A stretch of DNA of 64,000 nucleotides, from assembly GCF_910592395.1 (NCBI RefSeq), contig NC_088321.1, positions 9,984,001 through 10,048,000 of the forward strand. The letters run 5' to 3'. Under the pieces are notes generated by a model that did not search any database, was not told the origin of the DNA, and worked only from the letters and a program-made list of their open reading frames with translations. The DNA is from Lineus longissimus (lineage: Eukaryota; Nemertea; Pilidiophora; Heteronemertea; Lineidae). Of this stretch, positions 3,860 to 56,630 are shown piece after piece. Every line of letters begins with the position of its first letter. Position 1 is the stretch's first letter. Both the position numbers and the translations under genes were made by a program.

Positions 3860-31227
<27,368 letters not shown>

Positions 31228-32434: not shown

Positions 32435-33223
32435 TTACCCATCTTTGTTATTATTTACAGTTCCTTCTGATTCAAAAGCTCGAAATTTTGATGCAAACTC
32501 TTGAAACAGGGTACAGAGAGCGAGTATAGAGGGCGCCTCCAGTCTTCCCGGAAATGACGTCATCAGTGTCATGGTCTGTACTAATCCTTTCATGAGTGGT
32601 GGCGTCCTCTTCATGACCAGTGGCGCATTAGCGATGACAGAGGCGCGCTCCCATATGTTTGTTGTCAGCGCAGGGAGACGGAAACTGGCCTCAAATACCA
32701 TCCATGTGATGAGGGTACAGAGCTGATTAACAGTCCGAATTTTTCCAGAGTATCTATAGCCCTCTGCGTCATACTGGGGAAGGGCGTCCCGATAGATCTC
32801 CCGCACCCAACTTTGAACTTCCTCATCATTCATGACGTCATCATTATTTGTGTAGTGCGCTAGGATGAAATCTGTGACGTATGCTGACATGTTGTCCCAT
32901 GCACGTAACGCCTTCTGGCGGTATGGGTAGTGAGGTAGCTTCTTTGGGTCATGTGTTCCAACTGCTTCAAAACAATTTGGTACAAACTGCTGATCAATGT
33001 GGAAATCTCTGTACAAGTGTTCTCCGATTTTGCTGTACTGTCGCCGGTTTATTCCTGTTATTTTCTCCACGAGAGTAAGTACTTCTCGTGAGGACATGTT
33101 CATGGCGAGAATGGGTCTAAAATACGGCATCAGGAGCGTGTGGACTGGGTGGAACGAAGGCATTTTCCTCAACGTGGCATTGGCAACTGCTTCCACGATT
33201 CTGGCGAGCAATGAATGGTGGAT
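32435..33223 (-). CDS. AOS-LOX exon 10: C-terminal half of LOX domain, iron ligands replaced
   Basis: Acceptor CACAATTTCAG before 33223; phase 0. Recognisable LOX blocks are FHPVHTLLMPYFRPILAMN (the HP-x-LL-x-P-x-xR segment), DDVMNDEEVQSWVREIYRD and NAPLVMKRTPP. The helix that should read H-x4-H reads HHSLLA, so the first His stays and the second is Ala. The later helix that should carry His and, four residues on, Asn/His reads FEASFRLPALTTNIWE, giving Leu and Thr. The frame ends EGTVNNNKDG-stop about 20 residues after ALCTLFQEFASKF, where active LOXs continue about 55 residues to the iron-binding Ile. A GTAAAA donor two bases before the stop could instead lead to another exon. Confidence 0.88.
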   Translation of the reverse strand: MHHSLLARIVEAVANATLRKMPSFHPVHTLLMPYFRPILAMNMSSREVLTLVEKITGINRRQYSKIGEHLYRDFHIDQQFVPNCFEAVGTHDPKKLPHYPYRQKALRAWDNMSAYVTDFILAHYTNNDDVMNDEEVQSWVREIYRDALPQYDAEGYRYSGKIRTVNQLCTLITWMVFEASFRLPALTTNIWERASVIANAPLVMKRTPPLMKGLVQTMTLMTSFPGRLEAPSILALCTLFQEFASKFRAFESEGTVNNNKDG

Positions 33224-36200
33224 CTGAAATTGTGAGGGAGATGGAGGGCGTGGTGCATCAGGGTCACATCAGAGTGGAGGTTTCAGGGAACGAATGAAAG
33301 GGTACAAAAGTTTGGTCACTTATCATCATTCTATCCACAGAAGGCATAATCAAAGCATTACACCTCTGCTATATGAAGAAGACATAATTTACATTAATTT
33401 ATCAAACCCATGACCCAATTTATTCTGAGAAATTTGATCTTTCAAGCTTAAAAATTCCAACTTGAAATTATGCGAGGATCAGAACTTTTCCTCCAAAGGT
33501 GAAAAGTGCCGACATTTTATGGATTAAAATCAACTTATCGCAAGCCTTTTCATGCATGTGTTCGATACTTATGTTCACAAGCGTTTGTGCAAGAATAGTT
33601 ATCTGATACGTTTTATTGTGTTCGTATTGAGCATTTAGTAGGAAACCGCTTTACATCAGTCGGTACGTTTTAGCCAATCAATTACTCTAGCAAATACCCA
33701 GCAACCTTCTTCGTACAGCCGAGCAGTTGTCCCGAACTTTTCCGAGCATAAATTAGGACACGCTAAGGTATCATCGATTTTCCATGACAGGTCCTTACTC
33801 AAAGCGCCTCGTCTTTCGGGGATATTAAAGAGCGGGTCCTAACCTAACCTTCGAATTCTAACAGTTAGAGAATCGAACCCCATGATCTTTCGGTCATGAG
33901 TCTGGCACTTTCACGACGACGTACGCCACTGCGCTCTCTCTCCCCTATATAGCACGTACACACCCTTGGTAATAAAGGCTTTTGGGGTTTTAAAGACACT
34001 TTGAATGTTTTTCGGCCAACACCAATAAACGCGTCACCTTTAGATAATTTTCAGTGAAACGAAAAACCGTTAAAGGTTTTTTAAAATCTCAAAGACCTTC
34101 AAGGGTTTTTCATTTCCCTGAAAAACCTCTAAAGGAGCACATTATTGTGTTTAGGTTTTTTAGAAGCTAAAAAACCGTTATTTCTATGGGCGAACTTATG
34201 CATTGCACTGGCGGGAGAAAATACTTCCCGTCTGAAGCTTTTTAGTTCATTAGCTTCAAGTAAAAGGCCGAGGAAGTCACATTCATTCCGAGGGAACAAG
34301 AGTGTTGGGATGAAGATATTGCAAATGTGAGTTAACTTTAATTGAATGCCCGCTTTTCTTGTTTTTGTAACTTACCAAGTCAGCCTGCTGGTCAGAACAC
34401 TTCACATACGCTTTGGCTAGCTGCCACTCATCTTCGGGATCTTTTGGTGTCCAAACCTCGCCAGGTCGCTGCCCAAGCTGTACGGCCAAGGGGACGAGTA
34501 TGCCATCATCATTGACGTGGAAGGCGGCAATTGGTGCGCAGTAGTAGAACCCACGGCCACTCACTTGGGTGAGAGGTGTTAGGAAGGAATAATCGGCAAG
34601 GTATATTTTACCCTCCTGAAAGTGCACATTTTTGCATATGTTTTATTCTGTCTCTTTTTAGGAAAATAGGTTGATAATACAATCAATGAGAAAGACGATT
34701 CGGCTCTCGTTGGGGTAGATCTCGAATGTAAAAAAAGGAGGATGAGCTTGAGGCCAGTTGACCCTATAACAATTCTACAAATACAAAATGAGCCACACAC
34801 TAACAACGCCAATTCACCATCTCTGGCCAACCCCTGTTGGACCTGGCTTTTAACATGTCATTTGCACTCAGAAATGCGCCAAATCCCTTTTCGGGGTTCG
34901 ACGAAGTTTGCGGATTGCGAATTGCTCTATGAGATGTCTCCATTTCAGAGACGAATTCAATTTTCATAGAGATCGTGATGGCCAATTCGGCCCAATTCAT
35001 GAATAAGCCCTACAACGTCTTTATATGCTTAAAGATTACATACTATGTATGTTTTAAAATTTCCTCAGCAAGCAGCTGCGTGGGTATCCCCGCACCCAAG
35101 GCTAAAATCTTGGAGGCGTAATCATCATATATGCGCGCCAACTGTAGCTGGCAACGTGTATTTAAATGCTGCCATTTTGACCTACCATTGGGCCGAATAA
35201 TGTATTCCAACTAACCTACCTTGGAATTCATCAGCGAGTATTTGCCTAGGCTTGAGAACATCCTGATAATGAGTGTGATGGCATCAGTTAAGAAGTTATG
35301 GACCGTCAGGTCTACTTTAAATGCAATGTCATTTGAACTTTGGCCGAATTAATGTCCCGAATCGCAACACTATGAAGACAGTCATTTGGACTTTTGAATG
35401 TCGCCTACCTTTATTTCCTCATGAAGCGGTCGCCTTTGCCCAATGATTTCCTGAATTGTGCTGTCATCAACACAGAAGTTCGACGGTAGTCTGTTCTTGC
35501 ATCGCCTCAGTAGCATCGTCGGGGCAAGGAATTGGTTAACGTACTCCGTGTCCGTGTGCCAGGTAGAGGCGATATGCTTGACTTCCTTGCTATAGGGGAA
35601 GACGGCTTGCGCATAGTCTCTGGAAGCAAAAGCCATATTGAATACGAGGAGCATTTGGCTTTTGAGAGAATTCTACAGGGTAAGTCAATGAAAAGGTAAT
35701 CCAAAAGTAAAGAGTTTTGAATACTTCAAGGATGATTATTTTTGAATGACTTTATAGTTGTACCATAAAGTAGGAGCTACGGCTAATCCACTGACACCTT
35801 GATTATATTGCCCCGATCATGCTATGCTGAGCACCATCGTTTTGAATTAAAATACAGTATCGTCAAAATTAACGATTCTTATATGTACATGTATCATTCA
35901 TTTGATACATCATTTGTGCAGCTTTGCATCAAGGAACGTCATCAATTTAAAAAAACATGACACCGAAGCTTGCTAAATTGTCATGTTCTGCCACGATTCT
36001 TAAAAAAACTGTGGTCACAAAGGCATTTCCAAAGTAGTTGTGCTCACCGTTTACAGACCCCACAAATTCGGTAAGGGTATCATTTAAAAACCAAGGACCC
36101 CAGCTGTATTAACCGGGTCCTATATTTTGGATTACCTTTTTGGTTCACGGTAGGGGAGTCTATACAATACCGCTGTGTCTGTCGTCCGTCGTCGTCTGTA

Positions 36201-39200: not shown

Positions 39201-42200
39201 TAGATACATGTCCTCTCAAGTTTAGAACCTTCTAGCTCAAATAGAAACGAAACGTGCCACCTATCGGTGATTTAGTTAACTTTGACCTCTGTGACCTTGA
39301 AAAGTAAGTCAAATCAAAAACCCGGGTGATATGTCATTTACCCACCATAAAAATGTCGTCACTACATACAACCATTAGCTTCAAAAAGGCAAAAAACAAT
39401 TTCCAGATAGCAGCCAGGAGGCCAGAAAGTAGGTCATATCACGAAAAAGAAAAATACGTCTGGGCATATCGCCCAAAGCCACCATCACACCAAGTTTTAG
39501 CCATCTCGCCCTAGCGGTGATGAAACGTGTTCCGCTAAGAGATGACGATGACGTATAAGCTCCCCAGAGGTGAGCTACCAACTATCACGACTTCCTTAAA
39601 ATGTTTTTTATCGAAACATAACAGGAGGGCTTTTCAATCCATGTTACGAGCAGTGCACTATACACACTGACTCAGTGTGCGGACGATCAAACTATGACAG
39701 AGGGACTATGTGAGAATTTCAGCGGGTCCATGTAACATTCGACAGCCGGACCGAAGACCGGAAAATTGGACCCTCCGTTGTTGAAATACGTTTTTCTTTT
39801 GCAGCACTTTCATTGTTGCTATTTCTGACGTCATAAATTTAATCCTCGCGTCAATGATTTTGTGTGGTCACGACGTCATCACATCGCTGTCCAATCTCCC
39901 GGGCGCCGGGCCAAATGTCCAATTTACATGCACCCGCTGAAATTGTCACATAGTCCCTCTGCCAATTTGATCGTCCACACACTGATCCAGTGCGTATAGT
40001 GCGCTGCTTGTAACATGGCTTGCGTAATAAAGATATAGATTTTAACAATGAATGGCGCAGTGGCGCAGTCACGGGCGCCCAGTGTTGCCGTGATCCGTGT
40101 TCAGGTGACAACACGACTGATCACGGCGCCATTTCGCCTCACTTCAAACATGATTTGTGTATTAATGCAGGTTTCTCGCATGAATCTATTATCTCAGGCA
40201 TGTTACCTTCCTCGGCGTCGCTCAGGCAATGAAAACCCTCTTTTTTTAATTGTTTTTAGTTTTATGAACGGATCGCATTCTGGCAAAATTCATGGAAAAA
40301 AGCCATTTCGCGAGACCCCATCCACCATGTTGAAAAAATAGAACGCGCAATGATATTGCGCGCATGCTAACCTCTGTTGGATTAGTAATAGGGAGGGCGG
40401 CTGATCTATGGAACAGCCTCCTTGCTATTGTTTGGGGTTGAGGAATTAGGCTCACGCTTAGTCTGGAACAATGGACGATCATGTGGGAAGATAGAATAAA
40501 ATCTGAATCGGGATCAAGGCTCCAGAAACGTAATGGCCGAATTCTAACTGTACTGAGCCAGGTCATCTCAAGAATATGGGCTGTTTAGAACATGTATTTT
40601 AGTTGGCTGAAATCAGTGCGCAGGCGTCAATTTGAGGGTTTACACACATCGTGTCTTCTAAGAGATTGGTATTGGATTGTTATCTTCTTTCTTTTTGTGT
40701 TCGACTGGTCAAACTTTTACCTTGTCAATTGTTGGTCCTTAAGAACGTGGCAGTGACGAAAATCTGCCTCTGTTCCCCAAATCTTTTCTTTGAGAGATGT
40801 GGACTCAGGCCAGGCCTCCCCTCGGTTGGTAAACAGAGGACATTCTTCCAGGATGTGTTCTGGCATCTGTTCCTTTTCTCCTTTCATACTTCTTTTCGTC
40901 TCTCATGTTGGGTGCTGGTGTTGCTCTCATTCTGGTACGATTTGGCGAGGATATTAGCAACCGATTTCCCAGAAACGATACCTCGCTCAGTCGGGAGTAT
41001 GGTGGTGCCTCCTTCTTGACGGTCACCATTCAGAGATTTGGTTACGCACCAGAGCTTTTGAGTATCTTTTTCCAGGTTGAGGGAAGCTGTTTTCTCTAGC
41101 CAGCTTGATCGTATTTGTCGCAGATTCTCTCGAGTTACTCTTCCTTCACCTTGTTATGCTCCACTACATGTTGGCCATTAGGATCTATTTCCTCGTCACC
41201 CTGGCCTTCTTAATCCTGAGTGCAGTTTGTCAAGTTTAGTGTTCAAGTATGGCTTGCATTCTTGCCTTCCCTCTCTAGGGATTGTATTTTTGGCAGCATT
41301 TAGGATGGCATTAGAGATACTGGTTACATTATTTGTACTGACACTCCACTTGGAGAATATCACCTTTCGCGCTTTTCTGGAGTTCCAACTTTGGGGTAGA
41401 GGCTTGTTATCAGGCATGCCTTCAGAGCTGATATGTAGCATGATTGTTTGTTATCACTTCCTCCAAGCTGGCTGCATACTTCGCGACATATGCTTTGTTG
41501 GATGTCGTCAGTGGCTAGGGCAAGATCTGGACTGCTTGTCGTTCTCAAGGCTCTGGAGTCGAAGCTTGGTGGGTCGTCTGGTTGGTTGATCAGAGAAAGC
41601 TGGGAATCTGCCATCCACCTCTTGACTTTTTCCCTTTCTTGTATAGGTGATTGTAACCCCAACTTGGAGAATGGCTGTTAAAATCACATGCTACGATCCA
41701 GGTTTCGGGGTCTGGTATCACTTTTTCTAGCTACCTGTCTGTTGACGAGTAACTGCTGCAGACTGCAGAGAGAGCCTTTTGGATGGAACATGTTGGAAAT
41801 GATGGATTCTGCCAGCGCTTCTTCTGACCTCTGGATCTCTGTTGATGGCATGATGTACACCAGGGTTACTCCTCCTCCTCATTTGGACTGATGTTCTCTG
41901 TCCTGTCATTGCACCTCGTACCCTCTGATTGAGAATCTGTGCTCACTTGACAAGTTTCTTGAATGCAGCAGACATCAATGTTGTGTGTCTTGAGGAAGTT
42001 GTGGAATTCGATCTTCTTTCTCCTGACTCCTTTTGCATTTCATTGCATTACCCTGATTTTGTGACCATTCACAATCCAACTCCTCCAGTTACATTAGGAG
42101 TATTGGAGCCGCCAGTACCTTGAGATGGATTCTTTCGAAGCGCGGAACCCGGCATTGTCTCGACCTGTCTGTGAGCCATGGTGAGTGCCTAACGATAATT

Positions 42201-45200
42201 GTTTAACCATGTTCTCGTATATGCGTAACATATTTTTTTTAGAAACATCTAGAAATATAAATGCGGACCTTACGCCCCTCAAATGAACTAATCTTTTCTC
42301 TGTTTCTTTTGTGTCATCATATCCTTTTCAGGTAAGCACATATTTTTCTTAGGGAAACCGATACCTTTAGCCACCGTGTATCCATGCAGTAAATAACTCA
42401 CCCGAAGTCGCCCTCAGAAAGGAAGTTCATATGAAGTTCTAATTTAGTATCGCACATTCGATACATGGCATCTATTTTTTGTGTAACATTCCGCACCGGG
42501 ATGAAATCTCGCGATATCTCGCTTTGCTTGACTGTCAATCTCGCGGGAAGTGTGCTGATTTTCATCCATCCGTATATGTTTTGTTTTTCCCGGATCTGAA
42601 ATTTTCGGAGCTCAGCCAGGAAGTGGTGCTGTTCGCGGAAACACGTTTTGGCTGGAACATGTGGCAAGAAGACATATACAGTCAATTTACAGACACTCAT
42701 GAAAAGTTGCATGTATTGCAGTCTTTGTGCTATTTAGGGAAACTTTTCCATTTTATGTGCAATTTGTTGATGGAAACTAGAACTGCAGAATAGAAGGTAC
42801 CAAGGAAGCCAATAGCTTGGTAATAATGCCGTAACAATGACATTAGTTCTTTAAAGAAACAGGACAAGAACAATTTAAACGTATCAAACGGATACTGGGG
42901 CTACTTCTTTTAACTGATGATTGGCATACCATTCTCTGCTGGATTTTATGTTATTTAGTAGAGAGGTTAAACCACAAAATGAAATTTTTCCAATCATTTC
43001 AAGCACCCATCGCCAATATGTAGGGAATAGAGTCCCACACCTGGCTAGCGTCGATGCCAAGCGTGATTTTTCAAAAAGGGCCAAAATTATCCCTTTTCCA
43101 CAGAAGTTGGAATTTTCAAAAAATCACAAAAAGGGGGATAGAGATTTCAATAAAGTGCCATAATTTCCTTGTTACCAATCGGAAATCAACAAATTATATC
43201 TAGTATTGGAGCAGATAATGCTGCCTTCAGAATATTGTCAGCGATTTGAAGTTCGACAAATATTTGGGGTCATTAGGGGTCAAAAGGTTACGTGACCATT
43301 TATGACCCTTAAATTGTCACTTTTGTGAGTTTGACCCCCCGAAACTTATACTGAACTGGTCGAAATTGTTTCTATTTGTGAGTTTTCTGAAAGCATGCAT
43401 TCTGAGAGAAAACATGTTAAAGCAGTTTTTGAAAAAGAATTCACCACCCTGCCTCTATTAGGTCAGTAGTTCAAAAATGACTCTTTTTAAGAAAAAAATT
43501 AAGAAAAAAATTAAATGCTGGGGATAAGCTTAATTTGGGTTGTCGTTGACTCTTAATGATGTTTGAGACAATGGTTCATCACCCCATTGTTAAATTAGTA
43601 TCATAAATCATGATAAATAACTAATTGGGGGTGTTACATTAAAAGGGTGTCATTATGACCCTTTTTCAAAAACTGAAAAATATATGTTTATAAAAAAAAA
43701 AATAAGTGCATAGAAATGCTGACAAAACATATATTAATATCACACCACCCTTAACATAACTTTTATGCATTTTCCGGTATGCACTTTTATGCACTTTCCA
43801 AAAAAGGGTATCACAAGCATGCTGTAGGAAAATACATTAAGATTGCGATTTTCAACAAATGCCTTTTTTCATGCATCTATTGCAACAATCCATCCAAAGT
43901 ACTTGTCAAAACTGTTATCAAAATCAACTTTTATCCTATCATGCACATGCAGACAAGCTGTCCTTGACATCATCACTTATCTACGGTCTGCCAGTCAGTC
44001 AGTGATAATAAATGTTATGTAGTAATATGTAACCCGTTAACTTGGCATCGGCGACCCCCGTTATGAGCCTCCTTACACAAGGTAAGAGGTCAAGGTCAGG
44101 GGGAGGATACGGGGTCGCCGGGAAGAAAGGAAACGCATAGAGTCATGCCGTAAATTACTGCCACAATAAATCACTTGTAAATAGAGTTTAGGACGAAATA
44201 AACGTTATCAAAGTTAACACAAGGATTCATTATTGTTAGCGGAGTCGCTAAGGAGGAAACATAAGACGCCCAACGTGGAAAAAACACTTTTATTCGCCCT
44301 TCGGACTGCCGATTTTTCATCCTCACGCGGGGTTTGATATTACCGAACTTGCTCAATTGATAGTGCTTGGTCAGAATTTCTATGGATATATATGATATGC
44401 TGGGGCTGTCAGAGTGACATAGTGGAAACATCCGCGTGCGTCACCTCTGAGGTCCCGGGTCGATTCAGCTCTCAATTGGGTTGGGTCCTTGACGCAAGGA
44501 CCCAACGCGCCGCGTAGCGGCAAAACAGCGAAGCTGGCGAAACATTTATAACGGGTCACCGTGATCTCATTATGGACTTATAGCGCGATTATGGAGTTGT
44601 AACTATTTTGCTGTATATTGTCACGAGAAAAGAAAAGCACGCGACCTAACGCCAAACTATTTATGTAAAGAGATAATTAGAAGGTACATAGTTCAGGAAA
44701 TGTTGATAAAAAAACATTCCTTATCGTCTTTTGAGAGCATTTTTAATTACAAAAAGTATATGCCTACGTCACAGAGTCTCTAGAAATGGTCATTTTTATC
44801 ACAGTAGTGTCGCGTAGCCAGACCTTATTCTCCTATTAGTCTGGCGCAAGCCAGGCGATCTTTGTACTAGACGTTTTCCACCACAATGTATCTGAGCCAA
44901 AAAAACACTGCGCAAGATTACCTCGAGCTGGAGTTAAGATTAGATTATGCATATGACTCGAGGAGGATACTTCCTCATTGAATTTTCCCAGAATGGTGCA
45001 TATCGCGCGAAGCTACTTGGCCTTATATCATTAAGCCCGGCGTGGTGGCGCTGAGGCGGCCGCTGTAATCAAGAGAATGGTTGAGTCACTCTAGAAGCTA
45101 CTTGGTGATAACAAATGACAAACCTAACCAAAATTGCTTACATTTTCGCATTGCTACAATGAAAGACATAATATTGAAACCACGTGTCTGTTGACTAGAC

Positions 45201-46634
45201 ACCACTATACCCTCTCATCACACTCAGAAACCACCAACGCCCACCCATTCCTGCTACCTTAATACTTCTGGATAAATATGATGTTGTCAAGGTTTGCTTG
45301 TCTGCATGTGCATGATAGGATAAAAGCTGATTATATGACAATAGTTTAGGAACTTAGGGTTGGATTGTTGCAATAGATGCATGCAGAAAGGTGTTTGTTG
45401 AAAATCACAATTTTAAAACATTTCACATAATTTCATATATTTTGATACCATTTTGTATCACGTGACCTTTTGACCCCTAGTGACCCCAAATATTTGTCAA
45501 ACTTCAAATTGCTTACATCATTTTGAAGGCAGCGTTATCTGCTCCAATGCTAGATATAATCTGTTGATTTCCGATTGGCAATAAAGAATTATGGCCCTTT
45601 ATTTGTGTCCCCCATTTTTTGTGATTTTTTTTCAAAATTCCAACTTTTGTGGAAGAGGGTTAATTTTGGCCCTTTTTGAAATAGTCATGCTTGGCATCCA
45701 CCCTAGCCAGGTGGATGCTTGTGTCCAACACGAAATGATATTGAAAACCTTATCCATGCCTCTTCTTGAGTTTCGCCGCTCTGATTAGGCAAATCGACTT
45801 TGTCAGGAATGGTAATGTGGAAGAAGCTAGAGTTTGACCTACCTTCACAAATGGCGATGATATCTCGATTGCATATCACACGGTGTACCACCATCTTGTT
45901 CAGTGATTCATGCTTTTCGTTCATGATGGAAATATCGTGCAGCGCTATGACGTCACTCGCAGTCTCCAGAATGATTTCGAGAGCAAATGGTTTGCCAATG
46001 TCTGGAGATTTTATGCTCTTTGCGATGTTGGAGACTGGGAGGGGCTGGGCGTAGCTAGTGACATCGACAGGCGCTGTGGAACCTTCTGGACCTGGTTGAA
46101 GTGAAACGAGGTTTTTTTGAAACTTTTATGTTTGCATTTATAGATTTGTTTTATTTGGGCGGCAAGGGCTGCCAACATGTCCTACCTTGGTTGGTAAAAG
46201 TGCGACGTCTGCCGTTTCTAAATGCTAACATAATCTTGCCTACTACTGGCAATGCACCCACAGTCTATTTTGGAAGTTTGCATTGGACTTTTGAAGTGGA
46301 AGATTATGATGATCGATGAGGGCCGATCCACTTTACAGGGCTATATATAAGTCGGTCCCTTAAGCACTGTCTGTAATTTTGGTTGAATTTGAATGAATTT
46401 GGGGGATTTTCAGGAGGTTTTCGTGGTCTTGTCTGCCGGATCACTTCATTTAGGGTATATGATATAAGAAAGGTCGTGTCTGTGCTGAAATTTACACGAA
46501 ATCTGTAACACGTCATCAGATATGTGTAAAGATCTTAGACATTTTTGTGCATCCAACTCTCTTAAAATTTATAAGTAAACAACTGGTAAAGTTCCTATTA
46601 CACTAACTGTGAAATTAGTAAAAAAAAGTGAAAC

Positions 46635-46666
<32 letters not shown>

Positions 46667-49600: not shown

Positions 49601-52600
49601 GCTGCGGGATATAAAAATGAACCCACCCACTGTGAATTGCATGTGATGCATGCATACTGGCATTAACACAAAAAATGATGTTTCGTGATGTTTCTTGATA
49701 TTTGTACACAAATGCCTTTCATTGTTTGATATACTTCACTTATTAGTATGCCTTTTATCTCACTTTGATGCAAAGTCTGGTGATAAAAGGGTTAATCGTG
49801 TTAGCATTATTAAGCCATATTGAAGTATGAAACAATTGTTTATTTTCTTGAATAAAGCTATTTATTTATGCAAAAATAATACGTCAGAGTAACATTGGTC
49901 AGGAGGTTCATTTTACCCCGACCCGACTTCAAGTCTGGAACATAATCTCAGGGGCGTTTCCATTGATCTAGCTTCGTGAATTTAACGTCTCACTATCGGA
50001 AGAAGTAGCATTACAAGGTCCAGGCAAGCACTGGCGCATTATTTCTAAATTTCCGATGAAAACTGAGGTTCATTTTCCCTCGTCTTACCATACTATTGGC
50101 CCAGCTTAACGACTGCCAACTTCCTTGGTTTGTCTTCTGGGCCACAAAGCAAAAAGAGATGTGATGGGGGGGGGGGGGTAGACTTTTGACAATAAACCTC
50201 CAGCGTATATATATCTGGGTATCCTAGAGAGGCATGCTCATGTTAGTGCCCGAAAAATCTCCTTCACGTGGTATATGACCATTCCTCTTACCACCAGTCG
50301 GGCAGGTGTGATTTGTTCACATTTGTTGGATCTGGGTGGTGTCAAAGAAGGAGTCCCCTAGTTGTCACAAAACCAAACAGTTGCCTCGAGTGTACATAAG
50401 AAGCCTTCCCTAGGTCTCTACCTGCCCTAATATATATGTGTATGTAATGTCAACAATTTGGTCTCCGCATCAATGCAATGCGATGGTCGCGCCCGGAGGG
50501 GTCCACCGAGCTATAATGAGACCTCACATGAGTTGGTAGGGAACACCAATTTCTCCCATGGTGGGCCTCACTGTTAATGTCTGCGGTGTGATATTTTTTT
50601 TCAAAATGACCTGGTATCACTAGTATACCGTGACATTTTTTGGTAAAATGGGGTTTAGTACTACCCGTGGCCGCGGTGTCATGGACCACTGACCATTGTG
50701 CCGAATTTCCAGCATATACACCCATTGAACTAAGGAATGTGCACAGTGTTTTTGAGTATACTTGCATCAAATGTTATAATCGCATTTTGATAAAATATCT
50801 GTTTCCACATTCACTTTTTCAATTTACTTTTATCATCCTCATCCTCAACAATCATCATCATCATTATAATCATCAATGCGGGGGTCGTTGATATATTGGA
50901 AATTTTCCGGATTGACGGAGTCCACTACAGGCACCTGTCCACCTGTATGGGATGTTTACCTCCCCTGGCATATAGGGTAGAAAGGGGTATTTGTAGCCCC
51001 GGTTTAATTATAGCCCCTGCATCTGATATTCATTGATATCCCCTAGCATCAAATAATGCAGGGGCTACATATAAACCGGGGCTACAAATACCCCATCCTA
51101 CCTTACACTCGGAACACGGCTTATACTTTTTTGATTCGTGACTGTTCTTACCGTTAAGTATGATCTTCATCCGGAGAGTGTCGCTCTTCTCTAAAAACAA
51201 AGTTTCCACGGCAAGATGAATGTGATAGACGGCACCAACATCGACAGTGTCGTCACTACGGTTCATGTGACTGCAGGCAAGCGATATCCCTTGGACGAAT
51301 GCGATGGAGTTTGGATCATGCTTTGACTTCGCGCTCAGAAATCCAAAACATGGCGGATGGGATGATACCGAAAAATGGGTGCTCCTACACATTGCATCCA
51401 TCATCGATGTCGTTAAGATCACTTCCGCTAGAGGGAGCCAGGGGCACTGTGATTCATCCCACGGAAATATGGCATTACACACATGCTCAGAACCCTTCTC
51501 GCCCTCTGAGTCTTGCAGCTGTAATTCGAGATAGAATTTCACTGGTCGTCGCCGAAGCCTTGACTTCAGACCTTTACGAAGGTAGTCAACAGACCTTGTT
51601 TCCCCTGGGAGACGTTCCTTACTGCAATAAATATGCTATTATGTTTACATTCGCGTACAAATTTAGACAGGTGGTACCAGTGTGAAAGTAAATGCAGTCC
51701 TTGTGCATTAGTCCTTAGCTATTGTTTTGTTATGGGTTAAGGTTCAATGCTGTGCAATCGACGGTTGGAGGTCACAACATATTTTAAAGAACCTATCACT
51801 ATCCACAGACTTTCTCACCAGAGATCTAAGATTCCTCTCACCCCTTGGACACAGATGTCGAGTACAATGTCACGGTGCATTTCATTACTTTTTGATCCCT
51901 TCAAGGTTGAATTATAGCGTATCAATCATCAAGGAAAATCTACGCTGATTCCATAAAAGTATTGTCATAACCCCAAACGCATTAAGTATATATTTAACGT
52001 TTTGATCTAAACCTTTCTACATACCCGTACTACTGTTATTACTAAGACGTATGACCCAAGGTCACAAGGGTGTCATGGCAGCAGTCTGCAGTGATTCCCT
52101 CCTAAGAACTCTCGGTTTATAGAGAATTTCACTTGAGTCACTGGTTTATAAAGAATTTCACTTACCTCATCCAGTTTTTCACCTGGTCCCCAACTGTAAG
52201 TAGGCCTGTGTCCTTGACTGGGCATGCTGGAACGAGCCGGAATCTCCCGAAACGCTTTGTGCCATCGTCGGAATTAACGACGTATGTCACCTTTGTGTAG
52301 TAGGTCATCATTGAGAAAGAGAGAGGTGCTCGGCGGATTGCTTCGATGTGGGCAGTCAGTCTGGAATAAATCAGATTTCTTTATGAAGAGCTGCGTGGTC
52401 TACTAATAATCTAAACATCGCGGGTTTGATACCCGACACAGACACATCACATAGTTTGTGCCCTTCAGTCGATTTCCATGTGTGCCTAAGATCACACTCC
52501 TCTCAAAGACGATCCTGTGGGCTGTTCGCTAGAGAGGGGGTCTTGTTAAGAGACACACCTTTGTCGAGTATGGAGAAGGTACTCCTCAGTGGCATGGGTA

Positions 52601-55600
52601 CCATAGATTGCACACCTCTGATTGACAATCTGTTCGTGGGCCAAGTTCTAGAAGAGGGTCACGGGACTCTTAGTGGAGTATGAAGAAGGTACACCTCCCA
52701 GGCATGGGTGCCCCACTCGAGATCACACTCCTCCGGTTGAAAATCCCGTGTGTCGTGCCTTAGAAAGAGACGGTAAAGGGACTCACCTTTGTGGCCTATG
52801 CAGTAGGAACTCCTCCCTGGCATGGGTCCCTGCCACCACACTCCGTTGGTAAGCGATCTCATGAGCAGCATTTTCAGTGAATTTCATCTGCCCCGTTTCC
52901 ATGATAAGGTCGAAATTACTTTCCGAACTGAAAGGTTGATGATACGTAACATAAAATGTGGCACATTGCTTCATTTTACTGTTGTTTGGTTTAGTGTTGT
53001 TGTTTGTCCAAACTGGTTTCCTGAATTGTAAAATACCTGGATGGTAAAATATCTAAATACGTGATACCAAGCCCCGGTCACTTCGCATGTCTCAAGATTC
53101 CAGGTTTACGGTCACTTCGCAAGACTCGAGACTCAAGGTGTACGGTCACTTTGCAAGACTCGAGAATGAAGGTGTACGGTCACTTTGCAAGACTCGAGAA
53201 TGTAGGTGTACGGTCACTTTGCAAGACTCGAGAATGTAGGTGTATGGTCACTTTGCAAGACTCGAGACTGTAGGTGTACGGTCACTTCACAAGACTCGAG
53301 ACTCAAGGTGTACGGTCACTACGCAAGACTCGAGACTGTAGGTGTACGGTCACTTCACAAGACTCGAGACTGTAGGTGTACGGTCACTTTGCAAGACTCG
53401 AGACTCAAGGTGTACGGTCACTTCGCAAGACTCGAGACTCCAGGTGTACAGTCACTACGCAAGACTCGAGACTGTAGGTGTATGGTCACTTTGCAAGACT
53501 CGAGACTCAAGGTGTACGGTCACTTCGCAAGACTCGAGACTCCAGGTGTACAGTCACTACGCAAAACTCGAGACTGTAGGTGTATGGTCACTTTGCAAGA
53601 CTCGAGACTCCAGGTGTACAGTCACTGCGCAAGACTCGAGACTGTAGGTGTATGGTCACTTTGCAAGACTCGAGACTCAAGGTGTACAGTCACTTCGCAA
53701 GACTCGAGACTCCAGGTGTACAGTCACTACGCAAGACTCGAGACTGTAGGTGTACGGTCACTTCACAAGACTCGAGACTGTAGGTGTACGGTCACTTTGC
53801 AAGACTCGAGACTCAAGGTGTACGGTCACTTCGCAAGACTCGAGACTCCAGGTGTACAGTCACTACGCAAGACTCGAGACTGTAGGTGTATGGTCACTTT
53901 GCAAGACTCGAGACTCAAGGTGTACGGTCACTTCGCAAGACTCGAGACTCCAGGTGTACAGTCACTACGCAAGACTCGAGACTGTAGGTGTATGGTCACT
54001 TTGCAAGACTCGAGACTCCAGGTGTACAGTCACTGCGCAAGACTCGAGACTGTAGGTGTATGGTCACTTTGCAAGACTCGAGACTCAAGGTGTACGGTCA
54101 CTTCGCAAGACTCGAGACTCCAGGTGTACAGTCACTACGCAAGACTCGAGACTGTAGGTGTACGGTCACCTCGTAAGACTCGAGACTCAAGGTGTACGGT
54201 CACGTTGCAAGACTCGAGACTCGAGCAGTAATATATGGTCACTTCGTAAGACTCGAGACTCAAGGTGTACGGTCATTTCGCAAGACTCGAGAATGTAGGT
54301 GTGCGGTCACTTCGCAAGACTCGAGACTCTAGATGTACGGTCAATTTGCAAGACTCGAGACTCTAGCAGTATTATGGTCACTTCGTGAGACTCGAGACTC
54401 AAGGTGTATGGTCACTTGGCGAGACTCAAGACTCTAGCAGTATGGTCACTTCGTGAGACCCGAGACTCTCGGTGTACGCCGGGCCACTATGAGAATTTGG
54501 GTGTAGGGTCACTTTTGTATACGTTTCCCATATCAAAGGCTAATGTTAAACTTAACTAGGTAAAGATTAAACTCTTAAACCATCGTGACATCAGTCAGGG
54601 GTTTTCGTTAGCCTTTCGAGCATAATCAACCAATGCAGTGAATTTCTTATGTAAAAATATTATATGTAATTCCGATTCTCTTCTACTTGGCACCACTTTG
54701 CGTGCTTAAAGCATTAGCGAAATCGCCAGGTCCCTGATTCCTTACGTACCCGACCTCCTCCAACTTGATAGCTGCGCCCCTGACGTCGACACCCGCGTCG
54801 TCTGGAATGCTGCTGTTCGAAAAGCGCATGCGCACTCGGAATATTTTCCCCCGGATGAAGAATGGATTGTTTGGGATGTCCTGGTTATCATAAACAGTGC
54901 AAAAGCCTGAAGAAGATAATACAATCGTGATTGCGGAAATAGTGAGCGTCGGCTACGTCACTACGATGATTGAATGTACGCACTGTATTACAAGACCACT
55001 CATTTATGAAGACCCAAGGAATGTCTTGCACCAGTCATATAGTTTATGTATCATTCATTGATTTGTGAAAATTCCATGTATGGCGAGTATTTTCCGCAAA
55101 AACCTAAGGTGGTGGTTTTAACTGTAAAATGCTTGTATTATGTGCGCCGTTGTACACCACGTCCCGTGCTTATCTTCAATACTGAATTCTCCTACAACTG
55201 CGTTTAACGTTCCGTGTGCCTTACGTGATTCCACTCATCACCGCTTGGTGTCGCTGTGTTGCAAAAGTTAAGAGATTGGACACCTACCATTGTTGTGAAG
55301 GGACAGGTACCCTTTGTTGTAGATTCGAAAGTAAATTCAGTCTTTGATTTTAAAAGTCCTGCTCTATTATTCGATGTTTATTCAGGGATTTTAACTGGAG
55401 AGACCAAGACTTAATATTGTCATATTTGTTATACCGATGTGAAAGTGAATATAGTCCTCGGTTTTAAAAAGTCTACCCTACTTTTCGATGAATATTCATG
55501 TCTCCGGTGAGGTTGGAGTATCTTGGACTTGAAATAGTAGTGACCCGTTGTAGAAGAGAAAAGCCCGTAACCTATCTTGTAGCTGAGAGTCAGGCACCTT

Positions 55601-56630
55601 GCAGATGACAACTTGTGATTGTCACAATCAGTCTCAAAGACTTTTCACACCCATTTGAATGAGAGGACAACCTTCGATAGTCACAATCAATTTCAAAACT
55701 CGTCACAACCACTTTAATACAAAGACAACCTGTCATCGTCACAGTCAATTTCAAAGTCTTGTCACACCCACTTTAATATGATGACAACTTGTGATTGTCA
55801 CAACCAGTCTCAAAGACTTTTCACAACCATTTTGATAAGAGGACAACTTTCGATAGTCACAACCATTTCAAAGACTTGTTAGACCCACGCTGATATGAAG
55901 ACAACTTGAGATCACTACAATCAGTTTCGATAGTCACAATTACTTTTAAAAACAAGTCACACCCACTTTAATACAAGACAACTTTCGAAAGTCACAACCA
56001 GTTTCACAATCAGTTTTAAAGACTTGTTATTAAGTCTCTCTAGTTAAAACCCTGAATAAACATCGAATAACAGGGCAGGACTTTTAAAATTGAAGACCAA
56101 ATTTACTTTCACAGCGACAACAAAGGGTACCTGTCCCTTCACATCAATGGTAGGTGTCCAATCTCTTAACTTTTGCAACACAGCGACACCAAGCGGTGAT
56201 GAGTGGAATCACGTAAGGCACACGGAACGTTAAACGCAGTTGTAGGATAATTCAATACGTGATGTATATATAATACACAATACGCGCTTTATGATGCCGA
56301 AATGGTGATCACTAATACGTCGAATTAGACGAAGGTTAACACGATAAACATCGAAAAACAAGCTTTTGACTGTTAAAACCAACACCTAAGATTTTTGCGG
56401 AAAATACTCGCCATATCAATGCTTATATGTTTCTAGAAGAAAGGGTTTAAATCCACCGAAAAATGATTTCTGGAAAGCGTTAATGGCAGAAACCTAAACG
56501 TATATCTACCTGTTGCTCCGACGTATGTTTGATGATTTCCTGTTAGCGCATGTGTGACCTTGCTGAGTGACTTCAACCTCACTGCAGCAAACTTTAGGGC
56601 CAGTTGGCTGCCGAGCCACGGGGCTGGATA
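32435..56630 (-). CDS. AOS-PLAT-lipoxygenase fusion, predicted catalytically dead, partial 5'
   Basis: Gene overview. Ten exons (56630-56510, 54906-54750, 52927-52787, 52360-52166, 51621-51152, 46034-45843, 42651-42402, 35619-35409, 34615-34376, 33223-32435) have matching phases at all nine junctions and total 2766 nt, about 921 codons plus TAA. Domain order is catalase-related allene oxide synthase (exons 1-5), PLAT/C2-like domain (end of exon 5, exon 6), lipoxygenase (exons 7-10), as in the coral fusion enzyme that makes 8R-HPETE and then an allene oxide from arachidonate. Overall similarity is clear, but the heme ligands (proximal Arg/Tyr replaced by Gln/Leu; distal Asn by Glu; distal His absent) and iron ligands (second His to Ala, third His to Leu, Asn to Thr, no terminal Ile) are lost. 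The N-terminus lies upstream. An intact frame with lost cofactors points to a pseudoenzyme rather than a pseudogene. Introns carry most of the window's foldback elements. Confidence 0.85.
33858..33955 (-). repeat. tRNA-derived SINE fragment (Met-like)
   Basis: On the - strand a box-A-like GAGCGCAGTGGCG and a box-B-like GGGGTTCGATTCTC are about 45 bp apart, with a CTCATGA loop in the anticodon position. No clean cloverleaf, so a SINE head rather than a tRNA gene. It lies in the intron between LOX exons 9 and 10. Confidence 0.55.
34376..34615 (-). CDS. AOS-LOX exon 9: start of LOX core
   Basis: Acceptor TGCACTTTCAG, donor GTAAGT; 80 codons, phase 0 at both ends. Reads EGKIYLADYSFLTPL, YYCAPIAAFHVND, ILVPLAVQLGQRPGEVWTPK and DEWQLAKAYVKCSDQQADL. 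These match the LOX order GKIYIVDY, CAP, VPIAIQL and DW-x-LAK-x-W-x-x-x-SD that leads into the first iron-His helix. The QQAD where LOXs usually have a His/Gln-containing stretch is unusual. Confidence 0.92.
35409..35619 (-). CDS. AOS-LOX exon 8: N-terminal part of LOX domain
   Basis: Acceptor TTTTGCTTCCAG, donor GTAGGC; one base, then 70 codons. Contains ASTWHTDTEYVNQFLAPTML and LLRRCKNRLPSNFCVDD, then RRPLHEEIK, corresponding to the LOX segments W-x-D-x-x-F-x-x-QFL, RRC-x-x-LP and the L-x-EE-x loop. Exon 7 leaves GG and this exon supplies A, completing Gly in phase. Confidence 0.9.
36140..36840. repeat. Copy of the CGTCGTC-rich interspersed family
   Basis: Begins GGGGAGTCTATACAATACCG then GTCCGTCGTCGTC, with repeated blocks GACCTCTGACACTGAATTTC and GACCTCTGACACCGAATTTC, and ends near CATCTCACCTGATATC. 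Same family as 4127 and, inverted, 39240-39590. Lies in the intron between LOX exons 7 and 8. Confidence 0.5.
37899..38986. repeat. Tandem duplication of a MITE-containing segment, first copy internally deleted
   Basis: Copy 1 (37899-38346) and copy 2 (38350-38986) start with GGAATTGAACCCGAGGCGGA and end with ACGGTACCAAGGTATTTTAG. Copy 2 contains an intact palindrome (38353-38521: AACCCGAGGCGGAGGACCTT to its complement) plus about 140 bp that copy 1 lacks; copy 1 jumps from CCACCCGAG to GATAGGAAGTCCGCATCGG. The shared 300 bp downstream are nearly identical, so the duplication is recent. Confidence 0.75.
39640..40017. repeat. Inverted pair, about 95-bp arms
   Basis: Left arm CATGTTACGAGCAGTGCACT through AGGGACTATGTGAGAATTTC; the right arm is its complement (GAAATTGTCACATAGTCCCT to GCTTGTAACATGG). 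It overlaps the inner edge of the 37114-40367 right arm. Confidence 0.6.
40580..42125 (-). mobile_element. LINE endonuclease fragment (Jockey-like)
   Basis: On the - strand broken frames read VMQWNAKGVRRKKIEFHNF and HNIDVCCIQETC (42090-41950), then LSLINQPDDPPSFDS, SSPDLALATDDIQQ and GGSD followed by KARKVIFSKWSV (41610-41200). This is the endonuclease order N-x-x-G, IQET, PD-x-x-x and SDH. The end runs out near 40600. Frameshifted and inactive; it lies just downstream of LOX exon 7. Confidence 0.65.
42402..42651 (-). CDS. AOS-LOX exon 7: linker from PLAT to LOX domain
   Basis: Acceptor CACATGTTCCAG, donor GTGAGT; 2 + 82 codons + 2. Reads HHFLAELRKFQIREKQNIYG, WMKISTLPARLTVK and ISRDFIPVRNVTQK. 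The R-x-x-E/Q-R-x-x-x-Y-x-W pattern and following LP and S/P-RD segments match the start of the animal LOX domain after PLAT. Phases match exons 6 and 8. Confidence 0.78.
43035..45716. mobile_element. Large foldback element with long asymmetric arms
   Basis: Left arm 43035-43300 (CACACCTGGCTAGCGTCGAT, GGTCATTAGGGGTCAAAAGG) pairs with right arm 45460-45716 (TGACCTTTTGACCCCTAG to CTAGCCAGGTGG); a second paired block is 43840-43970 with 45290-45410 (ATGCATCTATTGCAACAATC; TATCCTATCATGCACATGCA). The left arm holds 540 bp with no partner. The loop (43976-45280) carries a tRNA-like SINE head near 44410. No ORF of note. Lies in the intron between exons 6 and 7. Confidence 0.7.
44408..44470 (+). repeat. 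tRNA-like SINE head
   Basis: Box-A-like TGACATAGTGGAAAC and box-B-like CGGGTCGATTCAGC about 35 bp apart, within the loop of the foldback element. No cloverleaf is formed. Confidence 0.35.
45843..46034 (-). CDS. AOS-LOX exon 6: second half of PLAT domain
   Basis: Acceptor CCCCTCCCAG, donor GTAGGT; 2 + 63 codons + 1. Reads SNIAKSIKSPDIGKPFALEI, then DVIALHDISIMNEKHE, NKMVVHRVICNRDIIAIC. The ALHDISIMNE...VVHRVIC pattern fits the PLAT strand-loop-strand that in active enzymes reads L-x-H followed by a W-x-x-x-R-V-x-I strand. The conserved Trp is Met here. This is the most diverged exon, but phases on both sides are right. Confidence 0.65.
46622..46836 (-). mobile_element. tRNA-derived SINE with (ATT)n tail
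   Basis: On the - strand: GGGGCAGCGGTAGTGCAGTG (box A TAGTGCAGTGG), box B GAGTTCGATTACC, a body, then GCGCTATATAAATCC and a tail of about ten ATT repeats (46635-46665). The CTCATGA loop suggests a Met-like tRNA ancestor. The CTATATAAAT end resembles the 3' ends of LINE partners. Confidence 0.72.
46840..49079. other. AOS-LOX intron: homopolymer-rich, no exon recognised
   Basis: Contains G or C runs at about 47780-47787, 47946-47957 and 48001-48016. A minus-strand frame at 48018-47764 (SLNRKSLFMSVETAHGW onward) is open, but it is bounded by the homopolymers and is not needed for phase between exons 5 and 6; I do not call it. Confidence 0.4.
49080..49577. mobile_element. Repeat family 'X', uninterrupted copy
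   Basis: A continuous copy of about 0.5 kb of the family split by Harbinger-1 at 6607-10391. It reads from TTTTGTTTCAGC..AAGATAGTAGAAAA to CAATGGTCCTTTAAG. At the site matching the Harbinger-1 insertion it has CGCTATTAAGAC without duplication. Confidence 0.65.
50167..50178. repeat. Poly-G tract
   Basis: An uninterrupted run of about 12 G. Similar G/C runs occur at 47946, 48001 and 60330 within the same 13 kb. Confidence 0.6.
50973..51106. repeat. Hairpin MITE next to AOS exon 5
   Basis: TAGGGTAGAAAGGGGTATTT with TGTAGCCCCGGTTTA at the left pairs with TAAACCGGGGCTACA and AATACCCCATCCTACCTTA at the right, loop about 30 bp. It ends 46 bp beyond the exon donor. Confidence 0.68.
51152..51621 (-). 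CDS. AOS-LOX exon 5: C-terminal AOS domain and first PLAT strand
   Basis: Acceptor ATTTATTGCAG, donor GTAAGA; 1 + 156 codons + 1. Reads KERLPGETRSVDYLRKGLKS, PVKFYLELQLQD, FPWDESQCPWLPLAEVIL and HDPNSIAFVQGISLACSH, then VYHIHLAVETLFL and LRMKIILN. The WDE..PW-x-x-LAE block is the catalase-fold segment shared with coral AOS. The segment NSI-x-x-L-R-x-x-x-Y, which gives heme its Tyr ligand in AOS and catalases, reads NSIAFVQGISL: Arg is Gln and Tyr is Leu. The last 30 residues are the first PLAT beta strands, so the AOS-PLAT fusion point is inside this exon. Confidence 0.9.
52166..52360 (-). CDS. AOS-LOX exon 4: central AOS domain
   Basis: Acceptor TGATTTATTCCAG, donor GTAAGT; 1 + 64 codons + 2. 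Reads LTAHIEAIRRAPLSFSMMTY, YTKVTYVVNSDDG, KRFGRFRLVPACPVKDTG and VGDQVKNWMR. E-x-x-RRAP-x-x-F, the Y-(S/T)-x-x-T strand and RFRLVP (in catalases the strand after the heme pocket) are the family's central blocks. Phases match exons 3 and 5. Confidence 0.9.
52382..52440 (+). repeat. Possible tRNA-derived SINE head
   Basis: GAGCTGCGTGGTCTA (box-A-like) and CGCGGGTTTGATACCCG (box-B-like) are about 30 bp apart directly upstream (in + sense) of the exon 4 acceptor. Weak evidence only. Confidence 0.3.
52490..52860. repeat. Three degenerate 110-118-bp tandem repeats, one of them coding
   Basis: Shared landmarks are GATCACACTCCTC, GCATGGGT (about 52592, 52701 and 52820) and (A/T)AGGAACTCCTC-like text. 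The copy nearest the gene's 5' side (52787-52850) is the 3' end of AOS exon 3; the other two lie in the following intron and still encode GTHA-x-E-x-Y-LLH on the - strand. Confidence 0.7.
52787..52927 (-). CDS. AOS-LOX exon 3: AOS segment with altered distal Asn
   Basis: Acceptor CATCAACCTTTCAG, donor GTGAGT; 1 + 46 codons + 2. Reads SESNFDLIMETGQMKFTENA, AHEIAYQRSVV and THAREEFLLHRPQ. The DFD-x-(L/V)-MNTG block of the family carries the distal Asn that helps bind the peroxide substrate; here it is METG, Asn to Glu. Phases match exon 2 (GG plus T gives Gly) and exon 4 (AG plus A gives Arg). Confidence 0.85.
53083..54500. repeat. 34-bp minisatellite, about 41 units, with 408-bp higher-order period
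   Basis: The unit is about GACTCGAGACT-(GTA/CAA/CCA)-GGTGTACGGTCACTT-(TGC/CGC/CAC)-AA. Variant triplets recur in a fixed order: the stretch from 53342 repeats from 53750, and 53580 from 53988, so the second level of organisation is 12 units (408 bp). Every unit has the palindrome CTCGAG. As 34 is not a multiple of 3 and no frame has a stop, the + strand stays open for 341 codons (53206-54231); this is a repeat artefact, not a gene. Units decay at both edges. It lies within the intron between AOS exons 2 and 3. Confidence 0.92.
54750..54906 (-). CDS. AOS-LOX exon 2: AOS segment
   Basis: Acceptor TTATCTTCTTCAG, donor GTACGT (a GTAAGG three bases on is the alternative, but breaks phase with exon 3); 2 + 51 codons + 2. 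Reads FCTVYDNQDIPNNPFFIRGK, IFRVRMRFSNSSIPDDAG and DVRGAAIKLEEV. R-x-R-x-SN...PDDA-x-x-D-x-RG-x-x-IK is the hallmark of catalase-related AOS and animal catalases (the strand holding the heme-contacting Arg). Confidence 0.9.
55079..56415. mobile_element. Foldback element A
   Basis: Ends TATGGCGAGTATTTTCCGCA (55079) and complement GCGGAAAATACTCGCCATA (to 56415). Long arms share GATTCCACTCATCACCGCTT and GTGAAGGGACAGGTACCCTT with their complements. The interior is made of degenerate repeats of about 50-60 bp with GACAACTT..GTCACAA..TTTCAAAGACTT. No ORF. A target duplication was not resolved. Confidence 0.78.
56510..56630 (-). CDS. AOS-LOX exon 1 (first visible): AOS start of heme region
   Basis: Acceptor TTTACTTGTCAG, donor GTAGAT; 40 codons + 1 base, phase 0 start, so at least one exon lies upstream. 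Reads YPAPWLGSQLALKF, KSLSKVTHALTGNHQ and TYVGATG. The T-x-T/H-x-VG-x-x-G segment is where active AOS has its distal heme His two residues before VG; here that position is Thr, with a two-residue deletion before it. A His in GNHQ is five residues before VG, so an alternative alignment should be tested. The exon sits in a gap of about 240 bp between foldback elements A and B. Confidence 0.8.

What the first reader, a model, noticed from the sequence alone, without database searches (positions are those of the whole stretch)
32435..56630. An intact AOS-lipoxygenase fusion gene whose two catalytic domains both appear dead
Seen: ten exons join in phase over 24 kb with standard splice sites and no internal stop, in the order AOS-PLAT-LOX. 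Known: in coral AOS-LOX, LOX makes a hydroperoxide with a non-heme iron and the catalase-like AOS domain turns it into an allene oxide with a Tyr-ligated heme. Here nearly all residues for both cofactors are changed (details in the next two findings). Inference: the protein is kept for another role, for example lipid binding, membrane recruitment via PLAT, or dimerising with and regulating an active paralogue. I know of no described case where both halves of this fusion are inactivated together.
Basis: partly seen in the sequence, partly recalled or inferred. Interest (0 to 1): 0.88.

Follow-up and report, generated by a model that had tools for sequence, protein, structure and literature searches.

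The report
Twice-dead coral-type oxylipin fusion enzyme
A bootlace worm gene still codes a full-length relative of a coral enzyme that makes fat-derived signals, yet most of the metal-holding residues of both of its halves are gone; a second worm gene and a lancelet protein have lost most of them too, which suggests an old protein kept for a job other than catalysis.

Summary
Confirmed and extended. The ten exons join in phase (940 codons, no internal stop, all GT-AG). The missing first coding exon lies 0.6 kb beyond the window edge: 11 exons, 1029 aa, ATG to stop. Contig sizes identify the genome as Lineus longissimus (Nemertea), chr14. The window protein keeps 3 of 13 cofactor residues in either of two alignments: heme-ligand Tyr353, Arg349, H943, N947 and the C-terminal Ile are lost in both. 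Its PLAT-like part is too eroded for Pfam. Two relatives show the same double loss: a complete AOS-PLAT-LOX gene on chr5 (1209 aa, 1 of 13 kept) and a lancelet record annotated 'AOS-LOX protein-like' (P0013, 3 of 13). No other AOS locus was found in the worm genome. Like-for-like, cofactor sites eroded more than other invariant sites in chr5 and lancelet (p 0.002, 0.005), only suggestively in the window gene (p 0.067). An AlphaFold model of the lancelet protein keeps both folds. Best reading: a bilaterian branch of AOS-LOX became a double pseudoenzyme, perhaps once before protostomes and deuterostomes split (tree support moderate). How it works is not shown; a scaffold or regulator is my best guess. 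No transcript or dN/dS data.

The parts
56510..56630 (-). exon A (second coding exon): start of the catalase-like AOS domain; holds the aligned distal site (R64->T or gap, T66->N, H67 kept)
   Evidence: splice sites and phase; alignment; no profile match on its own; its 5' junction matches a chr5 intron
54750..54906 (-). exon B: AOS core (R102 kept)
   Evidence: profile E 3e-13
52787..52927 (-). exon C: AOS; N137->E
   Evidence: profile E 0.0095
52166..52360 (-). exon D: AOS
   Evidence: profile E 6e-17
51152..51621 (-). exon E: end of AOS (R349->Q, proximal heme ligand Y353->L or S) and start of the PLAT-like part
   Evidence: profile E 2e-23; PDB 1u5u match
45843..46091 (-). exon F: PLAT-like part, very eroded
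   Evidence: no Pfam PLAT; placed by phase, splice sites and two introns shared with chr5
42402..42651 (-). exon G: linker and start of LOX
   Evidence: profile E 0.0006
35409..35619 (-). exon H: LOX
   Evidence: profile E 3e-10
34376..34615 (-). exon I: LOX up to the first iron-ligand helix
   Evidence: profile E 5e-19
32435..33223 (-). exon J: LOX; H757->S or kept H, H762 lost, H943->L, N947->T; stop codon before the C-terminal Ile ligand
   Evidence: Pfam PF00305 E 2.5e-21; PDB 2fnq

Best explanation
An open protein-coding gene of Lineus longissimus for an AOS-(PLAT)-LOX fusion that most likely holds neither the Tyr-ligated heme nor the five-ligand iron: a double pseudoenzyme. Shown: the open 11-exon gene, the changed residues, coding-type codon use, and the same double loss in a chr5 paralogue and in a lancelet protein. 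Inferred: the loss happened in a common bilaterian ancestor (moderate tree support) and the protein has been kept since. Mechanism, inferred only: it acts without catalysis, most likely (about 0.35) as a scaffold or regulator through protein contacts, perhaps with the worm's own lipoxygenases; next (about 0.3) as a lipid-surface or lipid-carrier protein, which suits the chr5 paralogue with its apolipoprotein-like N-terminus better than this gene.
Against: No transcript, protein or dN/dS evidence. For the window gene itself the stronger erosion of cofactor sites is not significant when like is compared with like (AOS 2/4 against 33/39, p 0.15; AOS, ten references, 2/6 against 49/78, p 0.16; LOX, ten references, p 0.0998), except LOX with 12 references (0/5 against 46/87, p 0.028), and that rests on the MAFFT alignment. 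It has also lost a recognisable PLAT and the C-terminus. Long branches make the placement of the worm genes unsure, and the AOS and LOX trees pair the lancelet with different worm genes. H67 and R102 remain, so binding of some heme is not excluded. A coral protein (P0016, Acropora cervicornis) also lacks part of AOS and has H943->Y, so decay is not confined to Bilateria.
Confidence: 0.58

Rival explanations
1. A recently dead or dying gene: it lost its function and is drifting, with no stop or frameshift yet.
For: Shortened C-terminus, unrecognisable PLAT, long branch (2.33 changes per column against 1.04 for the lancelet), large introns with repeats; cofactor sites of the window gene not significantly more eroded than other invariant sites in most like-for-like tests.
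Against: No disablement in 2,820 nt; at neutral divergence 0.02 the chance of that is about 0.0006 under my assumed indel rate. Coding-type codon use. AOS invariant core kept 33/39. A complete chr5 gene and a lancelet protein with the same double loss.
Confidence: 0.17
2. A lipid carrier or lipid-surface protein that uses the old substrate pockets or added amphipathic segments (a sub-case of the pseudoenzyme reading, so its odds overlap with it).
For: The chr5 paralogue has an N-terminal stretch with an 11-residue period (39 identities at lag 11, maximum of 2,000 shuffles 26) that matches Apolipoprotein A1/A4/E weakly (41 bits, below the cut-off of 90) and keeps a PLAT domain.
Against: The window gene has no Pfam PLAT and its N-terminal exon shows no such repeat. 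Pocket residues K60 and K107 and the LSLGGGGH region are changed, although K60 and K107 also vary in cnidarian P0007 and P0008.
Confidence: 0.3
3. A neofunctionalised enzyme with another heme or metal ligation.
For: His67 and Arg102 are kept in the window protein; the chr5 paralogue has Cys at the Tyr353 column.
Against: Arg349 is lost in all three and the replacement residues differ from protein to protein; LOX ligands are lost together with it.
Confidence: 0.08
4. An artefact: wrong splicing or assembly errors mimic the losses.
For: Exons A and F have no profile match of their own; the distal AOS site and the first LOX ligands sit next to exon borders, where the alignment is uncertain.
Against: PacBio HiFi assembly polished with 10X reads (PMC8593623); introns shared with chr5; R349, H943 and N947 lie well inside exons with strong matches.
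Confidence: 0.03

Closest known systems
Coral catalase-related AOS / 8R-LOX fusion (Plexaura homomalla, PDB 3dy5; Gersemia, Capnella, Dendronephthya, Xenia)
   Same: Same domain order; window protein matches 3dy5 at E 5e-92; AOS 94/316 and LOX 130/478 identical
   Different: Proximal Tyr353, Arg349, N137 and most iron ligands lost; PLAT unrecognisable; C-terminus short
Stony-coral AOS-LOX with altered AOS site (A. millepora c002903, A. digitifera XM_015912608.1, O. faveolata XP_020618715.1; PMC5793058, sections 6 and 7 read)
   Same: Same fusion, some with T66, R349 or Y353 changed
   Different: That paper reports the LOX ligands kept in all predicted AOS-LOX (C-terminus missing in one short sequence); here most of both sites is lost
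Acropora cervicornis 'AOS-LOX protein' P0016 (689 aa)
   Same: Partial losses in both halves: T66->G, N137->Y, AOS cut after coral residue 214, H943->Y
   Different: Four of five LOX ligands kept; a shortened database gene model, left out of the reference sets
Branchiostoma 'allene oxide synthase-lipoxygenase protein-like' (P0013)
   Same: Double loss: T66->F, H67->D, N137->H, R349->Y, Y353->Q, R360->L; H757->L, H943->N, N947->T, I1066->P. Groups with the window LOX part (96/93)
   Different: Less diverged; keeps R64, R102, H762 and the C-terminal region; in the AOS tree it pairs with chr5 (84/80)
Unnamed, presumably bacterial AOS-LOX fusions P0001 and P0015
   Same: Fusion without a Tyr at the 353 column
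   Different: Keep R349, H67, N137 and all five LOX ligands

Membership tests
Catalase-related AOS-LOX fusion (by descent) | Catalase-fold AOS domain N-terminal to a PLAT-LOX in one reading frame | tested here: met
   (PLAT by position only)
Catalase-related AOS-LOX fusion (as enzyme) | Proximal heme ligand Tyr353 with Arg349 | tested here: not met
   L or S, and Q, in the window protein; residues named in PMC5617202 (passages) and PMC5793058 (sections 6 and 7)
Catalase-related AOS-LOX fusion (as enzyme) | Distal residues T66, H67, N137 | tested here: not met
   N, H, E: one of three kept; N137 also varies among cnidarian relatives
Lipoxygenase (as enzyme) | Iron ligands H757, H762, H943, N947, C-terminal I1066 | tested here: not met
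   At most 1 of 5 kept
Lipoxygenase (by descent) | Pfam PF00305 over its cut-off | tested here: met
   106.4 bits against 23.6
PLAT/LH2 domain | Pfam PF01477 match | tested here: not met
   None in the window protein at E up to 1; 48.6 bits in the chr5 paralogue
Pseudogene | Stops, frameshifts or broken splice sites | tested here: not met
Pseudoenzyme | Fold kept while catalytic residues are lost | tested here: inconclusive
   Fold model made for the lancelet relative only; for the window protein sequence retention only, with mixed statistics
Pseudoenzyme | Absence of activity, heme and iron | not testable with these tools
   needs the protein

The most novel reading that the evidence does not exclude
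Bilaterian AOS-LOX is one ancient double pseudoenzyme: both metal sites were lost once, before lancelets and nemerteans parted, and the heme-free, iron-free fusion has since been kept in lineages as far apart as chordates and ribbon worms for a non-catalytic job, one branch adding an apolipoprotein-like segment.
Probability: 0.42. Interest if true: 0.78.

Novelty: new variant of a known kind. Interest (0 to 1): 0.62.

Why it matters
Coral AOS-LOX is a well-studied two-step oxylipin enzyme. If bilaterians kept its scaffold for a very long time after losing both cofactors, database names such as 'AOS-LOX protein-like' mislead, oxylipin chemistry should not be inferred from them, and the fold must serve something else that can now be tested in two animals.

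Tried and rejected
Paralogue exons at 2-6 kb of the window, suggested by weak tblastn hits, were inspected and rejected as chance. A C-terminal exon was sought below 32435 and a first exon inside the window by profile; none was recognised, and the first exon then turned up outside. A protein search with the chr5 AOS region found nothing; the search with the window protein scored only the 8,000 candidates sharing most words and gave two proteins. An early reading of the first LOX ligand was wrong: column 749 is not a ligand; it was corrected against published numbering. The column-deleted tree was run before that correction, so the H762 column stayed in. Rows dropped: P0002 and P0017 from the alignment; P0016 from the reference sets; P0012, P0014 and P0016 from the tree. 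Paper searches for amphioxus with AOS and lipoxygenase (2 papers), nemertea with lipoxygenase, lipoxygenase with catalytically inactive and iron-binding residues, pseudoenzyme with catalase and heme, lipoxygenase with pseudoenzyme or iron ligand (25 of 50 listed), and AOS-LOX with bilaterian, mollusc or other taxon terms (15 of 10,763 and 5 of 1,167 listed) showed in their listings no report of a double loss. A structure of exon J (alignment A2) was never accepted.

Full report
What is there. On the minus strand of the window ten exons join in phase from 56630 to the stop at 32435, all with GT-AG borders, giving 940 codons. The product matches coral AOS-LOX 3dy5 over query residues 12-925 (E 5e-92). 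Eight of ten exons match a profile of 13 relatives on their own at E<0.01; exons A and F do not. An 8 kb stretch fetched from the window edge upwards holds the missing first coding exon: ATG at window coordinate 64866, last base 64600, phase 0 as exon A requires, 89 aa with the motif EEWKNMAEEIF that aligns with coral WKNFGFEIF (N-terminal profile E 0.001, whole-length profile E 0.023). The gene thus has 11 exons, 1029 aa and spans 32.4 kb.

Which organism. The genome has 391,118,348 bases in 30 contigs, and the lengths of the large contigs read fit the chromosome table of Lineus longissimus tnLinLong1.1 to about 0.01 Mb (PMC8593623; part 1 of 2 of the text read): for example C2 29,188,318 (29.19 Mb), C14 16,759,716 (16.76), C20 13,632,599 (chr19, 13.63). 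The paper counts 32 scaffolds, so the held version differs a little. The window is therefore most likely chr14:9,984,001-10,048,000 of the bootlace worm, phylum Nemertea. This is inference from lengths, not from a label.

Cofactor sites. The residues named in print are R64, R102, R360 (heme), T66, H67, N137 (distal) and Y353 (proximal) for AOS (PMC5617202, passages), and R349 and the LOX ligands H757, H762, H943, N947, I1066 (PMC5793058, sections 6 and 7). In one search the coral sequence carried the expected letter at all 13. Window, MAFFT: T, N, H, R, E, Q, L, R for R64, T66, H67, R102, N137, R349, Y353, R360, and S, gap, L, T, gap for the LOX ligands (3 of 13 kept). Window, profile alignment: gap, N, H, R, E, Q, S, N and H, R, L, T, beyond the end (3 of 13 kept). 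The two alignments differ at R64, Y353, R360, H757 and H762; they agree that Y353, R349, N137, H762, H943, N947 and the C-terminal Ile are gone.

Second copy. A lipoxygenase search of the genome gave 20 exon matches. The best, on chr5, belongs to a complete compact gene (about 4,953,734-4,959,116, minus): 8 exons, 1209 aa, ATG to stop, one GC-AG intron, with Pfam LOX and PLAT. It has E, G, D, C, Q, L, C, N at the AOS sites and M, V, Y, N, M at the LOX sites: 1 of 13 kept. Six of its seven introns match window introns in phase, five at the same column and one within two, which supports both models and shows common descent. AOS searches of the genome found only these two loci: 9 of 9 matches with the window protein, 6 of 6 with the coral protein. 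Of the plain LOX genes on chr 2, 4, 6, 8 and 9, the ligand exons that displays keep the His ligands, and the four C-termini displayed to the end read -SISI; not every exon of every copy was displayed, and one chr2 copy reads KHCASH at the third and fourth ligand.

Relatives elsewhere. A search with the coral AOS region found 15 proteins: octocorals, a sea anemone, Acropora, a Branchiostoma record and eight without a name. The lancelet protein (P0013) has R, F, D, R, H, Y, Q, L and L, H, N, T, P: 3 of 13 kept. Searches with the window protein (8,000 candidates scored) and with the chr5 AOS region gave 2 and 0 proteins, so the wider spread in Bilateria is not tested. The ten reference sequences that I treat as cnidarian (six named or recalled, four unnamed that group with Acropora) keep R64, T66, H67, R102, R349, Y353 and all five LOX ligands; N137 and R360 vary among them. 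The Acropora cervicornis protein P0016, left out of the references, lacks AOS beyond coral residue 214 and has T66->G, N137->Y and H943->Y: partial decay of both halves also occurs in a coral gene model.

Decay or constraint. AOS positions invariant in 14 references, cofactor sites left out, are kept at 33, 28 and 34 of 39 in window, chr5 and lancelet; the eight cofactor sites at 3, 0 and 2. That contrast is not like for like, because only four of the eight are invariant in the references. Restricted to those: 2/4, 0/4, 2/4 (p 0.15, 0.011, 0.12). LOX, 12 references: 0/5, 1/5, 1/5 against 46, 56 and 69 of 87 (p 0.028, 0.067, 0.011). Ten references, AOS: 2/6, 0/6, 2/6 against 49, 47 and 64 of 78 (p 0.16, 0.006, 0.018); LOX: 0/5, 1/5, 1/5 against 65, 95 and 112 of 173 (p 0.0998, 0.139, 0.060); pooled: window 2/11 against 114/251 (p 0.067), chr5 1/11 against 142/251 (p 0.002), lancelet 3/11 against 176/251 (p 0.005). 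So selective erosion of the cofactor sites is clear for chr5 and lancelet and only suggestive for the window gene. The window CDS has GC3 0.539 against 0.422 GC in introns, and scores above all 1,000 intron pieces on codon use; under an assumed indel rate the chance of no disablement at neutral divergence 0.02 is 0.0006.

Descent. In trees the three bilaterian proteins lie on one side of a branch: AOS 82/82, LOX 39/0, joined with most cofactor columns removed 86/85. The parts disagree inside the trio: LOX pairs the window with the lancelet (96/93), AOS pairs chr5 with the lancelet (84/80); joined, window and lancelet 84/82. Uniting the two worm genes is not rejected in AOS (p 0.199) or jointly (p 0.207) and is at the edge in LOX (p 0.046). 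Long branches meet here, so one ancestral loss is the simplest reading, not a proven one. Different letters at the lost sites (for example Y353 to L, C, Q) fit drift after cofactor loss.

How it may work. Without cofactors neither half should catalyse its step; this is inference from established enzymology. The AOS lysines 60 and 107 that bind the substrate carboxylate in coral (PMC5617202, passages), and the LOX LSLGGGGH stretch, are changed in all three; the lysines also vary in cnidarian P0007 and P0008. PLAT is unrecognisable in the window gene. So the old substrate and the PLAT route to membranes are doubtful here. The chr5 paralogue has an 11-residue repeat with weak likeness to apolipoproteins. 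My guess is a scaffold or regulator for this gene, and a lipid-surface role for chr5. Neither is shown.

Novelty. Partial AOS-site changes are in print for stony corals, with LOX ligands kept (PMC5793058). In the listings, three of them cut short, I saw no report of both halves lost.

Noticed in passing
chr5 paralogue, L010 (C5:4,958,529-4,959,116): N-terminal exon codes about 11 units of an 11-residue amphipathic repeat weakly resembling apolipoproteins, fused to a cofactor-poor AOS-LOX; the gene's last intron is GC-AG.
   Followed up: partly
53075-54478: 34-bp tandem repeat, 41 copies, running from the intron between exons B and C towards exon B; it gives a 341-aa stop-free frame on the + strand.
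   Followed up: no
55603-55928, 57209-57530, 58855-59217: Three tandem arrays with similar 58-59-bp (or 117-bp) units in the upstream introns.
   Followed up: no
30997-31227 (+): Trypsin-type serine protease exon with the GDSGGPL motif just downstream on the other strand.
   Followed up: no
9377-10105 (-), 14903-15280 (+), 41360-41677 (-): DDE_Tnp_4 transposase pieces, and a weak endonuclease-reverse-transcriptase piece (21.8 bits, below the cut-off) in the intron between exons G and H.
   Followed up: no
P0001, P0015 (unnamed, presumably bacterial): AOS-LOX fusions keep R349, H67 and N137 but align D or A at the heme-ligand Tyr353 column, beside a one-residue gap.
   Followed up: no
L022 (C2:10,300,154-10,300,306): One plain LOX copy reads KHCASH where others read HAAVN or HAAAN, so its fourth iron ligand is His.
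   Followed up: no
P0016 (Acropora cervicornis): A coral AOS-LOX gene model with a cut AOS part and H943->Y, hinting that partial decay of the fusion also occurs in corals.
   Followed up: partly
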